NCBI RefSeq assembly: GCF_000420245.1
Contig: NZ_ATUO01000007.1
Location: 1 to 44,141, forward strand
Source of the DNA: Psychromonas hadalis ATCC BAA-638
GTDB lineage: Bacteria > Pseudomonadota > Gammaproteobacteria > Enterobacterales > Psychromonadaceae
DNA: 44,141 nucleotides
Direction of reading: 5' to 3'
The notes under the pieces: model-generated
Told to the model about the DNA's origin: nothing
The model's database searches: none
Seen by the model: only the letters and a program-made list of their open reading frames with translations
Part shown: one piece after another, positions 1,935 through 19,610 of the stretch
Numbering within the stretch: the first letter of the stretch is position 1
Layout of the letters: every line of letters begins with the position of its first letter
Translations under genes and position numbers: made by a program

Positions 1935-3190
1935 TTAACTGTTTACTACTTTGAGTTCTTGAGTGCCTGTTAAGCTCATATTGCCTATCGATGCTTGCTC
2001 GATATGATCACTCCACCAACTCATCACTTTTTGTCGTCTTTCAATATATTCACTGCGGTTATATGCTTTTCTCGCTTCATTAGCATCAATATGTGAGAGG
2101 CATGATTCTATAACATCACCATCAAACCCTTGTTCATTTAATGTGGTACTCGCTAGCGCACGAAGACCATGCGCAACTAATCGACCTTTAAACCCATTCT
2201 GCCTATGGCTACATTGGCTGTTGATTCATTGGCGTGTTTGCGTGGGTTACGATCCGCTGGAAATAAAAATTCACGGTGGCCACTGATAGGTTTGATAAAT
2301 GCAAGTAATGCGATGGTTTGATCGGTTAATGGAATGCTATGGGCACGATTCATTTTCATGCGTTCGGCGGGAATATTTCAAATTCTTGCTTCAACGTCGA
2401 TCTCTTCCCATCTTGCGCCGGCAGATTCATTGGGTCTGCATATGGTATGTAACTGCCATTCAATTAAACAACGGGTAATTATTTTAATACTGGCGGTATT
2501 AAGGGCTGCCATTAATTCAGGTAACTCATTTGGTTTAAGGGTAGGCATGTGGTTTTTCTTCGGTACCTCAAATGCTTTGTTAATACCAGCAAGCGCGTTG
2601 CTACTAACAAGGCCTGTATTTACGGCAAAAACCATCACTTCATTAATCCGTTGGCATAATCGTCTTACTGTTTCTAGGCTACCTTTTGCACTAACAGGGC
2701 GGATCACATCAATAACTTTTGGTGCAGTTAATTTGTTTAATGGGATGTTTCCCAGCTTAGGGAATATATGCAGTTCAAGCGATCGCCATGTATCAATCGC
2801 ATAGTTTTGACTTACTTTGGTCTTCTTTACTTCAAACCATTTTATAGCAGTATTTTGAAAGGTATTACTATTTGCTTCGTCTTCTAACTGCTCTTTTGAA
2901 TCTTTTTCATGTTTAGGGTTTAAGCCTTTGGCTAGAAGCTCTCTTGCAGATGTTCTTAATTTTCTGGCTTCAGCTAAAGATATTGCCGGATAGAGACCAA
3001 AACTCATCGAGGTCATTTTTTTAGTGTAGGGGCACTTGAAGTTTAAGATCCAACTTTTAGTGCCGTTGGACGCTATTTTTATTTGTAAGCCATCACCATC
3101 AGAAAGCTTCTTGGCGATTAACTTACCATCTTTCAAAGTGGGCTTTGCTTGTTTAACTTCTGTATTGGTTAGGGGAGTAGTTCTAGCCAT
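1935..3190 (-). pseudogene. P4-family tyrosine integrase, inactivated
   Basis: The N-terminal 270 residues (MARTTPLTNTEVKQAKPTLK..., stop at 2378-2380) show the DUF4102-like domain of P4/CP4 integrases and a catalytic Arg region (ICRPNESAGARWEEID). The stop is a TGA where TGG (Trp) is expected, and the same frame continues as NIPAERMKMNRAHSIPLTDQ down to about 2190. There a missing T in TTTAAAG (around 2189-2192) shifts the frame. The next frame resumes as GRLVAHGLRALASTTLNEQG (HxxR box) and ends with KAYNRSEYIERR, containing the nucleophilic Tyr, at a stop at 1935-1937. Two independent lesions mean no full-length enzyme. Its 5' end points toward the ssrA-derived repeat at 3351, as for islands integrated at tmRNA genes. 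Confidence 0.88.
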
Positions 3191-3471: not shown

Positions 3472-3489
3472 GTGGACACAATATGGTCA
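3472..3489. repeat. Candidate integrase arm site, left end
   Basis: GTGGACACAATATGGTCA matches 40009-40026 at 17 of 18 bases. The two copies sit about 90 and 115 bases inside the two prophage ends, so in the circular phage they flank the attachment core like arm-type Int sites. Smaller repeats (GTGCCATGTA, ACGCCATGTG, ATGCCACTAA at 3441-3470) lie next to it in 10-bp phase. Confidence 0.5.
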
Positions 3490-4485
3490 TTTATCCACGT
3501 CTGATAGCGGATTTAATCTAATCGCATCTTCTAAATGTGCAGGTGAAAAATGGGCGTATTTCATGGTGTCTGTAATGCTTGCATGACCGAGTATTTGTTG
3601 TAACACCAATATATTTCCCCCGTTCATCATAAAGTGACTCGCAAATGTATGCCTTAAAACGTGTGTTGACTGCCCTTTAGGGAGTCGAACCCCCGTCCGA
3701 TTTACTGCCATTTTGAATGACTTAATACAGTTGCTAAATAGTCGGCCACTGTTTTGTGGTAATTCGTTATACAGCGATTCGCTGATGGGTACGGCTCTGC
3801 GTTTGTTACCCTTGGTATGAATAAAGGTAATGCGATAGGGCGATAATTGCGATCCCGTTAATGATTCAGCTTCACCCCAACGGCAACCCGTAGAGATACA
3901 AATCTTAGAGATAAGGTAAGCATCAAAGTTACGGCCTTTCTTTAATTCATCAAAAACTAAGGTGATCTCATCTGGTTTCAGAAAGCCCATCTCAGGCTGT
4001 TTATATTTTAATGCACGTAGTTCAGAGAGGGGGTTGCCATGTGTCCACTCGCCTAATCGCTTTAGTTCGTTAAAAAGAGCATTTAAGTAAGTCTGGTCAT
4101 TGTTGGCAGTTTTGATAGAAACATCTTGAATACGCAGTTGTCGATATTTTGAAAAGTCGCTGGCGCTGATATTTTTAGCGATTGGATTACGCATCATTAA
4201 TGACAGTGCTAATAGTTTGTTTTTACGTTTCTTACCATCGCTGAGTGCTTGGCCGTGCAAACTAAACCACAATTCAATCAGTTCATCTAATCGGCGGTTA
4301 TCAACTTTCTCAGGTTGCCATGCCTTATCTTCCGATTTGGCTAATGTATATTGTACAAAACGTTTCGCTTCACCTTGAGTATCAAAACGCTTACGAACAC
4401 GTGCGCCTTTCGTACCAGTAGGGCGAAAATCGACAAGATATGTTCCATTAGATTGTTTTTTTACTGACACTTGGCAAACACTCAA
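3487..4485 (-). CDS. int: P2-type tyrosine integrase
   Basis: A 332-residue site-specific recombinase that integrates and excises the prophage at ssrA. An N-terminal arm-binding domain (residues 1-55) and a SAM-like core-binding domain (about 60-160) precede the catalytic domain. The catalytic set is visible: Arg202 in STGCRWGE, Lys225 in HTKGNKRR, the HVLRHTF box with His275 and Arg278, His301 in LGHAS, and Tyr310 in MKYAHF. Length and motif spacing fit the phage P2 integrase family. The stop lies beside the attL arm repeats. Upstream of the ATG, ATGGC/CATGGCAC words (4495-4521) mirror the GCCATG words near attL, suggesting Int or Cox sites at both ends. Confidence 0.93.
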   Translation of the reverse strand: MSVCQVSVKKQSNGTYLVDFRPTGTKGARVRKRFDTQGEAKRFVQYTLAKSEDKAWQPEKVDNRRLDELIELWFSLHGQALSDGKKRKNKLLALSLMMRNPIAKNISASDFSKYRQLRIQDVSIKTANNDQTYLNALFNELKRLGEWTHGNPLSELRALKYKQPEMGFLKPDEITLVFDELKKGRNFDAYLISKICISTGCRWGEAESLTGSQLSPYRITFIHTKGNKRRAVPISESLYNELPQNSGRLFSNCIKSFKMAVNRTGVRLPKGQSTHVLRHTFASHFMMNGGNILVLQQILGHASITDTMKYAHFSPAHLEDAIRLNPLSDVDK

Positions 4486-4651: not shown

Positions 4652-4825
4652 ATGCAAAAAGTTAAATATACCTTACAAGCTAGCGTTGGTGGAGCAGGTC
4701 TTGGTCTTGCTATTTTAGGTGGATTATCATTTCTACCAGCCGTAAGTTTTTCTGAGGGTTTCGTTTTTGCTACAGCTGCAATTACATCACTGGGATTGGC
4801 TGTTTACACCCTTATCAAAGCGTAA
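4652..4825 (+). CDS. Small two-helix membrane protein
   Basis: A 57-residue protein from the ATG at 4652, chosen because AAGGAGAAGG lies just upstream; an in-frame upstream start at 4631 has no comparable site. Two hydrophobic helices are apparent: residues about 12-30 (SVGGAGLGLAILGGLSFLPA) and about 36-55 (EGFVFATAAITSLGLAVYTL). Its stop overlaps the next start (TAATG), so the two are translationally coupled. It belongs to the cassette between int and repressor, where P2-like phages carry non-essential genes. No known family recognised. Confidence 0.6.
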   Translation: MQKVKYTLQASVGGAGLGLAILGGLSFLPAVSFSEGFVFATAAITSLGLAVYTLIKA

Positions 4826-5157
4826 TGCTTTCGTTTCTATTTGATCCCCGAACAACAGAGCAACTGATTAAATTCTATTTTTCGTGGATTATTATCCTGT
4901 TTTTACTCCACATGTTATTCGACAAATTCAGTGAACATACCTCTGATCATAATTGGAAAAAGTTAAAAGACAAAATTAGCGAGTTATATACATCTGCATC
5001 AGTCGCTAGTTCTTTGTTGCTTGGCCTTATGATTTTACATGGATTTAAGAGTCACCCATTATTTGGAAATGACATCATCCTTATCCCGTTAATTTTAAGT
5101 GCACTTACGGGGATTATTGTTGGAATTGATTCCCTCATTCCCAAAGCGAAAAAATAG
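4825..5157 (+). CDS. Three-helix membrane protein, unknown
   Basis: 110 residues with three likely membrane segments: about 16-33 (FYFSWIIILFLLHMLF), 58-75 (ASSLLLGLMILHGF) and 84-102 (IILIPLILSALTGIIVGI). A charged cytoplasmic or periplasmic loop (HTSDHNWKKLKDKISELY) separates the first two, and the tail is basic. It is coupled to the preceding gene by TAATG and ends in a strong terminator, making a two-gene unit. Such pairs between int and repressor in temperate phages often act in exclusion or defence, but nothing in the sequence identifies that role. Confidence 0.6.
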   Translation: MLSFLFDPRTTEQLIKFYFSWIIILFLLHMLFDKFSEHTSDHNWKKLKDKISELYTSASVASSLLLGLMILHGFKSHPLFGNDIILIPLILSALTGIIVGIDSLIPKAKK

Positions 5158-5179
5158 CCCACAACTTAGTGGGCTTTTT
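5157..5179 (+). terminator. Intrinsic terminator after the two-gene membrane unit
   Basis: GCCCAC (5157-5162) and GTGGGC (5169-5174) form a 6-bp stem with a 6-nt loop followed by TTTTT. The stem begins inside the stop codon of the preceding gene. Confidence 0.8.
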
Positions 5180-5210
5180 ATTACCTTAAAACAATCAACA
5201 GGCATACATT

Positions 5211-5378
5211 ATGCGAAAGGTATTCTACGGGCTTATTTTAATTACATCGTTAGTAACGGTAGGGTTGCAGTATGCCTACATACAAAAACTAGAAGGTGAT
5301 GTTGCTTACCTTAAGGTATTGTATGAAAAGATTGAAAAGGAATTTAATGAGCTTAATTTACTTGGAAAAGATGTTTAA
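5211..5378 (+). CDS. Small membrane-anchored coiled-coil protein
   Basis: A 55-residue frame from ATG 5211 (MRKVFYGLILITSLVTVGLQ...), with one N-terminal transmembrane or signal-anchor segment (residues 4-22) and a charged helix after it (KLEGDVAYLKVLYEKIEKEF). Not recognised. The last 14 codons (EKEFNELNLLGKDV) are repeated nearly exactly at 5434-5480, showing a local duplication. The ribosome-binding site is weak (no clear AGGA). The layout resembles small i-spanin-like or inhibitor proteins, but that is speculation. Confidence 0.5.
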   Translation: MRKVFYGLILITSLVTVGLQYAYIQKLEGDVAYLKVLYEKIEKEFNELNLLGKDV

Positions 5379-5399
5379 TTAATTTGTAGGTAAAAAAGC

Positions 5400-5480
5400 A
5401 TGGGTGTCCTGCCTTTTTTGTTGTTTGATAACGTTGAAAAAGAGTTTAATGAGCTTAAACTCCTTGGTAAAGAAACATAA
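5400..5480 (+). pseudogene. 26-codon chimeric fragment: repeat start joined to a duplicated gene end
   Basis: ATG 5400 opens MGVLPFLLFDN and then reads VEKEFNELKLLGKET, the latter duplicating the C-terminus of the preceding gene. The first part (ATGGGTGTCCTGCCTTTTTT) recurs at 5554-5573 and, more loosely, at 39732 where it starts a real gene (MDVLSFFLDQ). This looks like a recombination footprint and probably not a functional gene. Confidence 0.5.
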
Positions 5481-5583
5481 GTCTACTCGTTAGACTTATA
5501 TCCTTTGATCTGAATTATTCAATCTCAGCTTTCAGAGTATTCAGATATAAGCTATGGATGTCCTGCCTTTTTTACTGCCTTTT

Positions 5584-5937
5584 TTACTTATAAAGCTTAG
5601 ATTTTGCGATTATTGCATCATCTAATTGAGCTTCTAATTTCGTTGTATCTAAACCATTACCTTTATGTTCTTCGATTTGTTGCCTTAAAAAAGAAATCGC
5701 TCTATCGACTTTATTGTTGACCGTTTTTTCTGCAATTGTTTCTCCATTAAAGTGTAGGAAAATCCAATAGCAAATAGTGACAGTACCACTTGCTATAATG
5801 GGAGACATTGCTGATAGAGCTTTTATTGAGTCAGCATCGAGTCCCATGAGGTTATATTGACACAGGCAGACTAAGATTGTTGAAACACCAGCTGCGGCAC
5901 CTACTAACCCTTTATTATTTTCAGTTTTATTTGCCAT
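5584..5937 (-). CDS. Two-helix membrane protein with C-terminal coiled coil
   Basis: 117 residues. Likely membrane segments span about 11-31 (LVGAAAGVSTILVCLCQYNL) and 44-63 (MSPIIASGTVTICYWIFL). The remainder is a charged helix (VDRAISFLRQQIEEHKGNGL onward) probably in the cytoplasm. It is the last gene of a minus-strand run, and its ATG touches the stop of the upstream 81-residue protein (shared base 5937), indicating coupling. Co-directional with the repressor, so it may be expressed in the lysogen. No family recognised. Confidence 0.65.
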   Translation of the reverse strand: MANKTENNKGLVGAAAGVSTILVCLCQYNLMGLDADSIKALSAMSPIIASGTVTICYWIFLHFNGETIAEKTVNNKVDRAISFLRQQIEEHKGNGLDTTKLEAQLDDAIIAKSKLYK

Positions 5938-6182
5938 CAGGAAATAATTCTCCCGTTGGAAGCAAGAATTGTATCAATCAGCTCTTTATTATTTTCAATA
6001 TTCACTTTTTTAGTGACGGTTTTTCCTGAGGCTAGCTTAATTTCAAAGGTAATTGTTTTTGGTGGGAAAAATCTAACGACAAAAGCTTCCCCTAGCGCTG
6101 TAAATAAACGCCATATAAAAGGGAGTGTTAGAAGTATTCCTAGCAGAAGGAATAAATCTAAATATGCTTTTTCGTCTGTCAT
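5937..6182 (-). CDS. Single-span membrane protein with soluble C-terminal domain
   Basis: 81 residues: one N-terminal membrane helix (about 8-28, LDLFLLLGILLTLPFIWRLF), then a small beta-rich domain (KTITFEIKLASGKTVTKKVN) and an Asn/Ile-rich tail. It starts one base after the stop of the 299-residue upstream gene and overlaps the downstream gene by one base, so the three are a tight operon. The tail domain somewhat resembles a ubiquitin-like strand-turn-strand, but this is not secure. Function unknown. Confidence 0.65.
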   Translation of the reverse strand: MTDEKAYLDLFLLLGILLTLPFIWRLFTALGEAFVVRFFPPKTITFEIKLASGKTVTKKVNIENNKELIDTILASNGRIIS

Positions 6183-6183
6183 T

Positions 6184-7083
6184 TTATTCCTGAGATTGAG
6201 ATTGCGTTACATTTCTTGTTACTTGGAGTATATACCTTTTATATGTCGTTTTTGATCCATGAAGCACTTTTTTTACTGTTCTTAATTTTACTGAGTATAA
6301 GTCAGATTTTGCGAATTGTAGCTGATTTTCATTAATCTTATTAATGAAAACGTTATCTTGCATTATGATTGGAACGATAGAGTTAGAAGAGTCTTGTAAT
6401 TCAACTTTCCAGCCTGCATGTCCATCAAAGTTAATATTCGTAAACCGCACGGTTGTTTGGTCTTCAGTATCAAATACTTGATCAACAACATTAGAGCTAA
6501 GCGATTTGAAGTATTGAGTTTCATCATTTATAAATTTAAGGACTTCGTTGTCTTGCTCATCTTTAATGATGAATTTTGGATTAGTGGCCCCATCTAACGG
6601 CGCACTAATTACTTTATCAAGACTGTCTCGAAAAACTTTATTAACAATAAGGTCAGCGATATGGTGAGGAAGTTCCATCTTTGAATCATCATCTAAGTGA
6701 ACGGTTGATATTCCACCGTCACCTTTTTCAATAAGCTTTACTTTTCTGGATTTGACTGCTTTTATTGCTCCAAATACCGTCGCGACTCCTGCTGCTACAG
6801 GGATAAGCCCTAGCGCAGAAAGTGGGTTGATACCCGTAGCGCTCAAGTAGGTAATAAATTCAACAACAAATGAACCTTCAGAATTGGCTTTAACTTCAAC
6901 TTTCAAGTCAGCATCTTTGGCATTTATGTATGCATCAGCATCTTTGATCACGTTAGCCATATTACTAATTGCATTACCAAGCGTTAATGCATCAATCGTG
7001 TGATCACTTGTTTCATCTGTATCATAAGAAATTTTAAAAATGCGCTTGTTGTCATCTTGTGTTTGAGAAATTAAAGTTGTCAT
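6184..7083 (-). CDS. Prophage membrane-hairpin protein, DUF7946-like
   Basis: 299 residues. The N-terminal domain (about 14-75) is alpha/beta with IDALTLGNAISNMANVIKDA and a GSFVVEF strand, a pattern I associate with a family of phage-encoded uncharacterised proteins (DUF7946-like; from memory, not searched). A membrane hairpin follows (about 78-108, NPLSALGLIPVAAGVATVFG). The C-terminal 185 residues are soluble and beta-rich, ending in YILQVTRNVTQSQSQE. It heads a three-gene block with two small membrane proteins, spaced 1 base or overlapping. A role in superinfection exclusion or membrane-linked defence is inference from layout only. Confidence 0.6.
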   Translation of the reverse strand: MTTLISQTQDDNKRIFKISYDTDETSDHTIDALTLGNAISNMANVIKDADAYINAKDADLKVEVKANSEGSFVVEFITYLSATGINPLSALGLIPVAAGVATVFGAIKAVKSRKVKLIEKGDGGISTVHLDDDSKMELPHHIADLIVNKVFRDSLDKVISAPLDGATNPKFIIKDEQDNEVLKFINDETQYFKSLSSNVVDQVFDTEDQTTVRFTNINFDGHAGWKVELQDSSNSIVPIIMQDNVFINKINENQLQFAKSDLYSVKLRTVKKVLHGSKTTYKRYILQVTRNVTQSQSQE

Positions 7084-7105
7084 TATTGCCTCTAAAGTTA
7101 GTTAA

Positions 7106-7555
7106 TTATTTACCCAAACTGTCAAACATTTCACCTGTAATTAATAGCTTTTGATTATCTAGCCTAAAGTATGACTTAGAGTCTTTTGTATTAATTAATT
7201 TTATAGAAACTTCAAGTGTTGCTGTCTTAGTATCTGCGGATAGAGTTGTAAAATATGCCGTTACTGTAGTGGAGTGTTTAGATGATTGGATGTAATAAAC
7301 ACCATCCCAATTACACTCGGTATTAAGCTTTTTATTGTTTTTGCTTTTAGACTTGGTTATCGTATTTGATGTTATAAGCTTATTGTTCAATGATATTGTG
7401 CAGTAGTTTTCATCACTTTCACCAAAGTAAATATCAGTCGTTGCTTGCCCGTTCAAGTTGCCATCAGTTACAAGCATTGTTTTTAATTCGCTAGATTGTA
7501 CAAAAGATGAATACAAGGCAATTACTGGTGCGAAAATTAAGAAAAACTTTTTCAT
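7106..7555 (-). CDS. Exported protein with signal peptide, unknown
   Basis: 149 residues. A classical Sec signal peptide, MKKFFLIFAPVIALYSSFVQ, is probably cleaved near QS-SE (about residue 22). The mature part is Ser/Thr/Lys-rich and beta-like with two cysteines (YCTISL and ECNWDG) that could form a disulfide. No lipobox, so it is periplasmic or secreted. Upstream and co-directional are the endonuclease I gene and the CI repressor, which suggests lysogen expression. It sits 22 bases before the membrane trio. Function unknown. Confidence 0.6.
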   Translation of the reverse strand: MKKFFLIFAPVIALYSSFVQSSELKTMLVTDGNLNGQATTDIYFGESDENYCTISLNNKLITSNTITKSKSKNNKKLNTECNWDGVYYIQSSKHSTTVTAYFTTLSADTKTATLEVSIKLINTKDSKSYFRLDNQKLLITGEMFDSLGK

Positions 7556-7611: not shown

Positions 7612-7734
7612 TCACATTCTCTGGCCTGACCAAACTACTTCGCCGATGATTTGAAAATCTTCGGTTTTTAGTTCGGTGCGGGTGAGTTCCCATACGGGGT
7701 AGCTGGCAACATTTAAACCGTGTTTACTATTCAT
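7612..7734 (-). pseudogene. C-terminal remnant of an S24/LexA-type peptidase
   Basis: A 40-residue frame whose ATG overlaps the stop of the nuclease gene (ATGA). It reads NVASYPVWELTRTELKTEDF then QIIGEVVWSGQRM. This matches the end of S24 repressor/UmuD-type domains (an N-x-x-YP strand followed by a closing IIGxVVW strand), and parallels the end of the intact CI here (NPNWPTPITP... IVGVVISAMRL). The catalytic Ser and Lys regions are absent. It is probably the tail of an earlier repressor left behind when the present repressor-nuclease pair was exchanged. Confidence 0.5.
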
Positions 7735-8462
7735 TGTGAGCACCTGTTATCAACAACCCTGTTTTTATTGCCCTGTAATTTAGCTATTCTTTTAGCTCGC
7801 TTACATTCCCATTTGCTTACTGGGTACATTTTATCCCACGCGTTCATTAGCTGTTTTTGCTGTTTGCTCATGCTGTACCGGTTATATGTTTCATCCATAT
7901 AAAGATAAGTTCGAGCGATGCGACCTCTAGCTGAAACAGGAGGCTCTGCCTTTCGGTTGGCTATTTTCATTTCGCATGAGCCAAAGCTACTTTTTCCGCT
8001 AGGTAGCATTGTGAAATTGTAATTGCTTCTTAATGCGTTCACTGCGCCAATAGCGGGGTAAAGATTAAACATATCGGCTTGCATATAACGATATTCTTTA
8101 TTTACCTTTTCAGCACAACGGCGACCCTTAAATGACTTCCCTTTACTATTTACACACTTCGCATCACCCTCACGCCACTCTTTGAATGTTCTACCAAAGT
8201 TTTCTGCAGGGACAACATGCTCCCATTCAACTTTTTTGGCGCGTTTAACATATTTAGTAGTAGCAAAACCATCAGGGGGAGAGATCTTCTTTTTAGAGTC
8301 AAAAGTTGCGTCACAGTACAGTGTAACTCTGTGATCATGGTAAACCTGTTTTTCTAAATTTTTTTTGGCGCGACTAAATGAATCATTTGTTTGATTCGAC
8401 GCAAAGGCTAAACAGGTAAAAAAGAGTAGAAAAAAGGAGGTAAATAAATTCTTCATTGTCAT
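7731..8462 (-). CDS. Secreted endonuclease I (EndA/Dns family)
   Basis: 243 residues. A Sec signal peptide (MTMKNLFTSFFLLFFTCLAF) is followed by the Endonuclease_1 fold: VEWEHVVPAENFG with the catalytic His, an N/H-rich metal-binding half (DMFNLYPAIGAVNALRSNYN), and several cysteines (YCDATF, KCVNSKGKSFKGRRC, GSCEM, ECKRA) that likely form disulfides, as in Vibrio Dns and E. coli EndA (about 230 residues). Such enzymes cleave double-stranded DNA non-specifically in the periplasm or outside. It begins two bases after the CI stop, so it is probably co-transcribed with the repressor. It may degrade incoming DNA or extracellular DNA; that role is inference. Confidence 0.85.
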   Translation of the reverse strand: MTMKNLFTSFFLLFFTCLAFASNQTNDSFSRAKKNLEKQVYHDHRVTLYCDATFDSKKKISPPDGFATTKYVKRAKKVEWEHVVPAENFGRTFKEWREGDAKCVNSKGKSFKGRRCAEKVNKEYRYMQADMFNLYPAIGAVNALRSNYNFTMLPSGKSSFGSCEMKIANRKAEPPVSARGRIARTYLYMDETYNRYSMSKQQKQLMNAWDKMYPVSKWECKRAKRIAKLQGNKNRVVDNRCSQ

Positions 8463-8463
8463 A

Positions 8464-9105
8464 TTAAAACAATCTCATCGCAGAAATAACCACACCGACG
8501 ATGGTGCAGTTTCCGTTGATGGGGGTGATTGGGGTTGGCCAGTTGGGGTTGGCTGCTTGTAAAAACTTCTGACCATCTTCAACAATGAGCTGTTTAAAGG
8601 TGGCTTGGTTTTCATCTTCTAAACGAGCGACGATATATTTTCCGTCTGTGGCTTGTACTTCGGGGTCTACAAAAATCAATTCTCCCTCTGTGAATACGGG
8701 GTTCATGCTTTTGCCTACCACTTTGAGGATAAAGGTGCTTTTTGAGCATTTGACGGGGCAGGGGTAATAATCGGCTTCATGTATTGATGTTAGTGAAATA
8801 TCTGACCAGTCGCCTGCTTGTACCCATGAAATTAACGGGAACGCACCTTGTGGTTTGAGGTAAACGGGTTCGACATTGTTATCCCATGCAACAGGCAAGG
8901 GTGAGCCTTGACCGTGTAAAAGCCAATCTGGATCACAATCTAGTGTTTTAGCTAATGCAATTAAACTCTCGCCTCTTGGGCGATTAACCGATTGCTCCCA
9001 TTGGCTTATAGACACTCTAGATACTCCCGAAGCCTTTCCTAATTGGGCTTGGGTGAATCTGTTTTCTTTCCTGAGTTTTAAAATTCTATCGCCTAGCGTT
9101 TCCAT
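8464..9105 (-). CDS. CI-type phage repressor, HTH plus S24 peptidase
   Basis: 213 residues. The N-terminal XRE helix-turn-helix (about 16-40, TQAQLGKASGVSRVSISQWE) binds the operators upstream. The C-terminal LexA/S24 domain has the self-cleavage bond Ala97-Gly98 (WVQAGDW), nucleophile Ser133 (VGKSMNP) and general base Lys171 (ATFKQL). Activated RecA would trigger autocleavage and induction. It is divergent from the cro-like gene across about 125 bases. Classical P2 C repressor is a small non-cleavable protein, so this lambda-like repressor in a P2-like early region is a mosaic feature. The nuclease and conversion genes follow on the same strand. Confidence 0.92.
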   Translation of the reverse strand: METLGDRILKLRKENRFTQAQLGKASGVSRVSISQWEQSVNRPRGESLIALAKTLDCDPDWLLHGQGSPLPVAWDNNVEPVYLKPQGAFPLISWVQAGDWSDISLTSIHEADYYPCPVKCSKSTFILKVVGKSMNPVFTEGELIFVDPEVQATDGKYIVARLEDENQATFKQLIVEDGQKFLQAANPNWPTPITPINGNCTIVGVVISAMRLF

Positions 9106-18563: not shown

Positions 18564-19610
18564 ATGCACGAACATATTATGAAAAATGGGCAATTAAGAT
18601 TGGTTAATGCAGATTGTCTACAATATTTAAAAACACTTCCAGATAACCACGTAGATTTAATTTTAACAGACCCTCCATATTTTCAAGTTAAAGCTAATGC
18701 ATGGGATAACCAGTGGCCAGATGTAGAAACATTTTTAGCATGGCTTGATGAAGTTCTTGTTGAATTTTGGCGCGTATTAAAGCCGTCGGGTAGCTTATAT
18801 CTTTTTTGCGGTTCAAAATTATCAGCCGAAACAGAGATATTAATTAAAAGTCGTTTTAATGTGTTAAATCATATCGTCTGGGCTAAACCTTCAGGTATTT
18901 GGAAAAGAACGCATAAGCCATCGTTACGTTCATTTTTTCCCGCAACAGAAAGAATTATCTTTGCCGAACACTATGGTGCAGAAGGATTTGCAAAAGGAGC
19001 CTGTGGGTATGCAACAAAATGTAGCCAATTAAAAAAAGAGGTCTTTAAGCCACTGATTGATTACTTTAAAAATGCGCGCGAAGCACTGAATATATCAGCC
19101 AAAGACATTAACCAAGCGACAAACACCCAAATGTGTTCACATTGGTTTTCATCAAGCCAGTGGAAACTTCCCACAGAAAAACAATACAAACAGCTACAAA
19201 AATTGTTCTCGTTACGTAGTGATGAATTATCTCGAAGCCATGGAAGCCTTGTAAAAGAACGCTCTGAGCTACTTAATAAATATGAGCATTTGCTATTGGA
19301 GTACCAGGACTTAAAAAAACAATACGATGATTTAAGAAGGCCTTTTGGTGTAACAAGTGAAGTGCCTTATACGGATGTATGGTTATATCCTCCCGTCCAA
19401 TATTACCCTGGCAAACACCCCTGTGAAAAACCTGCTGATTTACTTGATCATGTTATTTTAACAAGTAGTAAAGAAGGACAGTTGGTACTTGATGCTTTTA
19501 TGGGATCAGGTTCTACAGGTAAGGCGTGTTTAAAATTAAATAGAAATTTCATCGGTATCGAGATGGAAGAACCTACGTTTAACAAAACGCTAATTGATTT
19601 AGAAAAATAA
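18564..19610 (+). CDS. Beta-class DNA methyltransferase
   Basis: 348 residues. Motif IV TDPPYF (about 33-38) comes first and motif I DAFMGSGSTG (about 308-317) last, with EKP before it (HPCEKPADLL), the beta-class order of N6-adenine or N4-cytosine methyltransferases. The middle region (about 170-270) with charged coiled-coil segment ELLNKYEHLLLEYQDLKKQY is the target-recognition part. AAGGAGC precedes the ATG. No restriction partner is next to it, so it is a solitary (orphan) enzyme, probably for genome protection or gene control. Confidence 0.88.
   Translation: MHEHIMKNGQLRLVNADCLQYLKTLPDNHVDLILTDPPYFQVKANAWDNQWPDVETFLAWLDEVLVEFWRVLKPSGSLYLFCGSKLSAETEILIKSRFNVLNHIVWAKPSGIWKRTHKPSLRSFFPATERIIFAEHYGAEGFAKGACGYATKCSQLKKEVFKPLIDYFKNAREALNISAKDINQATNTQMCSHWFSSSQWKLPTEKQYKQLQKLFSLRSDELSRSHGSLVKERSELLNKYEHLLLEYQDLKKQYDDLRRPFGVTSEVPYTDVWLYPPVQYYPGKHPCEKPADLLDHVILTSSKEGQLVLDAFMGSGSTGKACLKLNRNFIGIEMEEPTFNKTLIDLEK

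What the first reader, a model, noticed from the sequence alone, without database searches (positions are those of the whole stretch)
4652..7555. Lysogenic cassette of unrecognised membrane and exported proteins
Six small genes between int and repressor encode mainly membrane proteins: a coupled two-gene unit on plus and, on minus, an exported protein with a three-gene membrane block headed by a DUF7946-like protein. Position and direction (downstream of CI) are those of superinfection-exclusion or defence genes, but no known system matches. Best candidate here for an undescribed system.
Basis: inference. Interest (0 to 1): 0.72.

Follow-up and report, generated by a model that had tools for sequence, protein, structure and literature searches.

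The report
Three-gene prophage anti-phage defence cassette
A dormant virus in this bacterium carries a small three-gene unit, one toxin-like protein plus two membrane proteins, that recurs on many mobile elements and looks like a new version of a known system by which infected cells stop other viruses.

Summary
The genes are real. On the minus strand, A (299 aa, 6184-7083), B (81 aa, one membrane helix) and C (117 aa, two membrane helices) overlap or nearly touch and recur as a unit: 30 of 55 A-family loci carry B and C. In samples of 295 genomes of the order, 11 of 12 genomes with a B match and 10 of 11 with a C match have it beside an A gene. Carriers include lambdoid-type and Mu-like prophages, a Zot-encoding element, a PM2-like virus and plasmids.

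B and C match neither gp30 nor, convincingly, any library family.

Best reading: a three-gene variant in which A, held at the inner membrane by B and C, stops growth on infection. Phenotype untested. The plus-strand pair and the exported protein were not seen beside other copies. New variant of a known kind.

The parts
6184..7083 (-). A, 299 aa: gp29-type / LAPAL / PDC-S42 family protein; N-terminal alpha-beta domain with GSF motif, hydrophobic Gly/Ala-rich stretch, middle domain, C-terminal OB-like barrel
5937..6182 (-). B, 81 aa: one N-terminal membrane helix, predicted cytosolic C-terminal tail
   Evidence: C-terminal side more basic in 16 of 16 members; no convincing family match: weak ones only, best NF033708 E 0.0034, below its cut-off; 16 members, 0 PADLOC matches
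5584..5937 (-). C, 117 aa: two membrane helices plus cytosolic helical hairpin
   Evidence: model of four helices, pLDDT 82.9; both ends predicted inside in 15 of 16 members; no convincing family match; 16 members, three stray PADLOC matches of one member each, E 0.007-0.009
7106..7555 (-). X, 149 aa exported protein upstream of A; possibly co-transcribed, not a conserved member of the unit
   Evidence: phrog_25845 E 1.2e-6; no relative in other loci held
4652..4825 (+). p57, small membrane protein; neighbour, not part of the trio
   Evidence: phrog_13406 E 1.9e-5
4825..5157 (+). p110, membrane protein overlapping p57; neighbour, not part of the trio
   Evidence: phrog_36716 E 5.8e-10; no tblastn match in phages at E 0.01
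5211..5378 (+). p55, short ORF after a terminator-like hairpin; doubtful gene
   Evidence: no relative in other loci held

Best explanation
A-B-C is a lysogenically expressed anti-phage defence unit of the MMB_gp29_gp30 kind in a three-gene form. A is the growth-stopping component. B and C form an inner-membrane complex that shows cytosolic parts to A (B's tail, C's helical hairpin) and keeps A inactive or positioned. Infection by another phage disturbs the complex; A then acts, directly or by opening the membrane, so growth stops before progeny are made (abortive infection). Shown by calculation: A's homology to gp29, the conserved unit, the predicted topology, the spread over unrelated mobile elements, purifying selection. 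Taken from papers: toxicity of gp29, putative membrane nature of gp30, abortive infection by the MichelleMyBell prophage. Inferred: expression in the lysogen, that this trio defends, that A is its toxic part, that B and C bind A, and the trigger.
For: A versus MichelleMyBell gp29: hhalign probability 98.7, E 3.8e-16 over 270 columns; hmmsearch E 1.7e-22 against a background of 2841 ORFs; gp29 itself fits PDC-S42, E 1.6e-16. MMB described as toxic gp29 plus putative membrane gp30, mechanism unknown (PMC11856565 passage); MichelleMyBell defence typical of abortive infection (PMC6426606 passage), Tweety plating down four to five orders (PMC8549241 passage). Unit conserved: 27 of 57 A loci have both B and C by profile, 16 of these 27 used in neither profile; 30 of 55 after three were added by architecture. 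Setting fits cargo: directly beside the integrase in Vibrio phage PE001; on an IncC plasmid, two genes from an integrase; in six prophage loci between antiterminator Q and holin or lysis genes, on the strand opposite to both (L034, L063, L065, L066, L083, L085; gene calls partly by eye, checked by Pfam only in L062 and L063); 33 plasmid-collection records with A, two of them chromosome-sized Proteus records. Some copies lie near other defence genes: FRG/PDC-S15 and AbiH in L059, KAP/PDC-S20 in L088.
Against: gp30 (67 aa, two predicted membrane helices) is not matched by the B or C profile (E 88 and 54), so the partners are not shown to be homologous. 25 of 55 A relatives show no B and C (two of them, L051 and L074, have under 800 bases downstream), so A can exist without them; some lie among ordinary chromosomal genes, by eye. 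No phage-challenge or toxicity data for any trio copy came up in the searches made. Sparse: 3 of 99 genomes, the window's own included, matched by single-sequence search. The OB-like barrel has no consistent positive charge (net -12 to +7), which gives no support to a nucleic-acid sensor. The proteus copy (L053) is on the same strand as the lysis genes beside it, and two contexts are inside structural genes. Defence neighbours were noted only where I happened to see them; no enrichment test was made. The promoter scan found no more sites than shuffles, so expression in the lysogen rests on position alone.
Confidence: 0.68

Rival explanations
1. Superinfection exclusion: B and C, with A on the cytosolic face, alter the inner membrane so that incoming phage DNA is not injected; no cell death.
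For: Two of three proteins are small membrane proteins; location downstream of the repressor; the cluster N prophage Charlie excludes DNA injection of Che9c with a single membrane protein (PMC6426606 passage).
Against: A is the best conserved part and its relative gp29 is reported as toxic, MichelleMyBell defence as abortive; A genes without B and C exist.
Confidence: 0.14
2. Toxin-antitoxin or addiction module that stabilises its mobile element, with defence at most a by-product.
For: gp29 reported toxic; found on plasmids; overlapping genes; fold match of A to a DUF6575 protein; two DUF6575 proteins match PADLOC's PD-T4-10_B, a toxin (PMC9519451 passage).
Against: Many loci lie among phage genes (by eye). 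The PD-T4-10_B match covers residues 21-116 of the DUF6575 proteins, not the part that resembles A; the hhalign link of A to DUF6575 is weak (best E 0.017, probability 2.6).
Confidence: 0.12
3. Virion structural protein, as the NCBIfam name 'LAPAL motif-containing putative phage structural protein' says.
For: NF053583 E 3e-56; two trio contexts lie among head or baseplate genes (L003/L086, L012/L078).
Against: Plasmid copies, copies antisense to late genes, a copy next to an integrase, a PM2-like and a Zot-encoding element; membrane partners.
Confidence: 0.02
4. Lysis regulator, since several copies sit beside holin and lysozyme genes.
For: L053 (with methyltransferase on its other side) and L034, L063, L065, L066, L083, L085 (with Q on the other side) lie next to holin or lysozyme genes (by eye except L063).
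Against: In the six loci with Q the trio is on the strand opposite to the late genes; plasmid copies have no annotated lysis genes in the stretches read.
Confidence: 0.04

Closest known systems
MMB_gp29_gp30 (Mycobacterium phage MichelleMyBell genes 29 and 30)
   Same: A is a full-length relative of gp29; a small membrane protein follows and overlaps it; carried between lysis genes and integrase of a temperate phage
   Different: Here two membrane proteins B and C follow, neither matched to gp30; Gram-negative hosts; low sequence identity; also on plasmids and non-tailed elements
PADLOC PDC-S42 (phage defence candidate)
   Same: 41 of 41 A-family members match at E <= 0.01
   Different: That PDC means phage defence candidate and S single-gene is my recollection, not from a call; the models matched here cover A only, and no paper on it was found
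Lambda RexAB and Sbash gp30/gp31
   Same: Cytosolic protein plus membrane protein, abortive-infection model; lambda rexAB is expressed with cI (passages)
   Different: RexA is RdgC-like with DUF4747; A matched DUF4747 at no E <= 1, and RexA is not among the 50 PDB fold matches shown of 1004
PD-T4-10 (two overlapping genes, toxin B) and DUF6575 proteins
   Same: A's model matches a DUF6575 protein in BFVD, E 3.2e-8; the best hhalign segment with an enlarged DUF6575 set falls on a shared GSF motif
   Different: Sequence link not significant; different partner; no DUF6575 match in A
NCBIfam NF053583 LAPAL family and Pfam DUF7946
   Same: Same protein family
   Different: Name says structural; the literal LAPAL motif is absent from the window protein (sequence)

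Membership tests
MMB_gp29_gp30 | gp29 homologue | tested here: met
   both also fit PDC-S42; note in the PE001 record
MMB_gp29_gp30 | gp30 homologue next to it | tested here: not met
   B and C profiles do not match gp30 (E 88, 54); B and C are membrane proteins in the same place, which is analogy only
MMB_gp29_gp30 | toxicity and abortive infection | not testable with these tools
   reported for MichelleMyBell only (passages)
PADLOC PDC-S42 | match to the model | tested here: met
   E 2e-31, residues 13-291 of A
RexAB | RexA-type protein (DUF4747 / RdgC-like fold) | tested here: not met
   no DUF4747 at E <= 1; RexA not among the 50 fold matches shown; no direct comparison with the RexA structure was made
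RexAB | four-helix membrane partner | tested here: not met
   B has one and C two predicted helices
PD-T4-10 / DUF6575 | DUF6575 domain in the toxin | tested here: inconclusive
   no Pfam match; fold match E 3.2e-8; hhalign probability 0.4-3.4
Phage structural protein (NF053583 name) | location in structural operon | tested here: not met
   not so in the window nor in the loci; seen in two contexts (L003/L086, L012/L078)

The most novel reading that the evidence does not exclude
A gp29-type toxin is controlled by a two-protein membrane device (B plus C) unrelated to gp30. This makes the trio a separate, widely mobile defence system of Gram-negative elements, present even in a PM2-like virus, a Zot-encoding element and conjugative or megaplasmids, and shows that one toxin core has been coupled to membrane partners at least twice.
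Probability: 0.5. Interest if true: 0.65.

Novelty: new variant of a known kind. Interest (0 to 1): 0.5.

Why it matters
It links an actinophage defence pair of unknown mechanism, an untested candidate (PDC-S42), a probably misnamed 'structural' family and an unnamed Pfam domain (DUF7946) into one family, gives it a new genetic unit in Gram-negative bacteria where laboratory tests are easy, and points to two membrane partners for which the four libraries searched gave no convincing match.

Tried and rejected
Rejected: structural protein and lysis regulator (see rivals). Nucleic-acid sensing by the OB-like barrel is not supported by charge. DUF6575 kinship was tested in five calls and stays inconclusive. 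Butters gp30/gp31 is a similar pair, but no ORF of the 8 kb Butters stretch matches the A profile and only a weak B match appears (E 0.3). A fold search with C in the viral library gave nothing at E <= 0.001; C was not searched in PDB. PDB sequence search with A gave nothing better than E 0.15. The genome-contig scan gave only two loci, its patterns being narrow. tblastn with p110 and X in phages found nothing at E 0.01.

Literature. PDC-S42 and DUF7946: no paper. LAPAL: 17 papers hold the word, 10 were listed, none of those on this family. NF053583, PF25678, phrog_3243, PDLC05015, WP_065285140: none; DUF6575: one. A six-term search for a like system: none. 'Phage defence candidate' with PADLOC: four papers listed, not opened. 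The PADLOC web-server paper does not contain 'PDC'. Of all papers cited I saw outlines or passages only, none whole.

Rows and limits. Before the tree L005 (truncated copy of L076), L023 and L049 were dropped and L076 added: 57 to 55. L054, L060 and L076 were set as trio by hand from architecture; the profiles missed B and C in L054 and C in L060. L051 is a weak match. Loci from near relatives (L034/L061/L064/L065, L063/L066/L067, L083/L085, L088/L090) are not independent. In some searches only up to 14 and 18 candidates per genome were scored, and one search missed the C gene of G084 (seen as L038), so absence of B or C elsewhere is not proven. An earlier check of p57, p110, p55 and X used ORFs of 60 aa or more and a capped list; one search replaces it.
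Full report
What is there. The window is a 44 kb contig (G000:C7), also held as a viral contig. Between a tyrosine integrase (3487-4485) and an S24/HTH repressor (8464-9105) lie a plus-strand pair (p57, p110), a doubtful short ORF (p55), and on the minus strand C, B, A and the exported protein X; an Endonuclease I-like gene sits next to the repressor. The minus-strand genes run in the same direction as the repressor and downstream of it, so read-through is possible but not shown; the promoter scan found no more sites (15) than shuffles give (mean 19.0).

What A is. A matches NCBIfam NF053583 (E 3e-56), PHROG 3243 (1.4e-82) and PADLOC PDC-S42 (2e-31), and Pfam only at chance level (SLED, E 0.12). 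Of 41 family members, 41 match PDC-S42 at E <= 0.01 and 7 match DUF7946 at E <= 0.1. The predicted structure (pLDDT 87.3, pTM 0.71) has an N-terminal alpha-beta part and a C-terminal barrel. PDB fold matches: none at E <= 0.001; the most plausible to me are OB folds such as Rim1 (6cqo_B, E 0.02, probability 1.00, target TM 0.64). A hydrophobic Gly/Ala-rich stretch near residues 88-107 has at most one charge in 35 of 41 members; its median best 19-residue hydropathy is 1.58, against 0.96 for the best stretch elsewhere. It reaches 1.6 in 19 of 41, other stretches in none; in a few members (such as L037, L038, L072, L073) it is not the most hydrophobic stretch.

The unit. Profiles of A, B and C run on all ORFs of 91 loci gave 57 distinct A-family loci; 27 have B and C by profile, 16 of them outside both training sets. 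After the adjustments told in Tried and rejected, 30 of 55 carry the trio: 27 of the 28 leaves of one clade, plus L037, L038 and L054 (single quick tree, supports not examined). Searches of 295 genomes of the order with the C and B profiles gave 11 and 12 genomes; 10 and 11 have the match beside A (positions compared). The others are a match inside a long ORF of another kind (G475) and a weak match with a stop (G584), with no A beside it. All 10 of these C copies and 10 of the 11 B copies are in the profiles, so their recovery is by construction; the informative part is that little else was found, within the scoring limits told in Tried and rejected. Topology: B's C-terminal side is the more basic in 16 of 16; C has both ends predicted inside in 15 of 16.

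Where it sits. In six prophage loci between Q and holin or lysis genes, antisense to them (L034, L063, L065, L066, L083, L085); in L062, L064 and L067 beside Q, with other genes on the far side (Q confirmed by Pfam in L062, holin and lysozyme in L063, the rest by eye). In a Proteus mirabilis record between a methyltransferase and lysis genes, same strand (L053, by eye). In Mu-like settings (L003/L086 beside a virion morphogenesis gene, L060 beside Mor). Among baseplate-like genes (L012/L078, by eye). In Vibrio phage PE001, with PM2-type capsid annotation, directly beside the integrase. In a Vibrio coralliilyticus stretch with a Zot-family gene. On a Shewanella IncC conjugative plasmid, near an integrase and a type I modification gene. 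33 plasmid-collection records hold A: 30 Pseudomonas, 2 Proteus (chromosome-sized), 1 Shewanella; one Pseudomonas record was read and has the trio.

The link to a tested system. A fold match to a 184-aa Pipsqueaks protein led to Pipsqueaks gp31, identified by its length, which matches the C-terminal part of A (E 4.4e-16 among 239 ORFs); a separate upstream ORF in another frame matches the N-terminal part (E 5.5e-5). Relatives of gp31 are in 37 phage records, 33 of Mycobacterium and 4 of Gordonia, 30 of them at 99% identity or more. In MichelleMyBell the protein is one 310-aa gene, gp29, followed by the overlapping gp30. A and gp29 align over nearly full length. The MMB system is described as toxic gp29 plus putative membrane protein gp30, mechanism unknown; the prophage's defence as abortive infection, with Tweety plating reduced four to five orders. 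I saw passages of these papers only, and none is the original report. gp30 is not matched by B or C; gp29 scores about equally with a profile of the trio-clade A proteins and of those without B and C (57.2 and 58.6 bits), so it does not side with the trio form.

Judgement. A works most likely as the growth-stopping part of a defence unit whose membrane partners are B and C. It is not filed as a member of MMB_gp29_gp30, since the gp30 feature was tested and not met; it is a three-gene variant of that kind. The plus-strand pair, p55 and X were not found beside other copies and are treated as neighbours. How A is triggered and what it harms are not known from anything done here.

Noticed in passing
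window 7731-8462, minus: Endonuclease I-like protein (PF04231 E 6.1e-31) with a signal-peptide-like start (by eye), directly downstream of the repressor; below the NCBIfam cut-off for deoxyribonuclease I (187.8 against 372 bits).
   Followed up: no
window 5337-5378 and 5437-5480, plus: The end of p55 seems to be partly duplicated downstream, and a 'gtcctgccttttt' stretch recurs near 5407 and 5560; a small duplication, seen by eye.
   Followed up: no
window 2177-3190, minus: A second integrase-like ORF (270 aa) and a short ORF in another frame, perhaps a disrupted integrase; by eye only.
   Followed up: no
L151:5395-6304 (Pipsqueaks): The gp29 relative lies in two overlapping frames, whereas the MichelleMyBell copy is one open frame.
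   Followed up: partly
L059:6566-11295: Trio lies between an FRG-domain (PDC-S15) gene and an AbiH gene, perhaps a small defence island on a viral contig.
   Followed up: partly
NCBIfam NF053583 (window 6184-7083): The family name 'putative phage structural protein' is probably misleading; plasmid and antisense copies argue against it.
   Followed up: yes
window 18601-19198: Only stretch of window 1-24000 similar by megablast to a phage record: dpnA methylase of Vibrio phage ST2-1pr, 71.5%.
   Followed up: no
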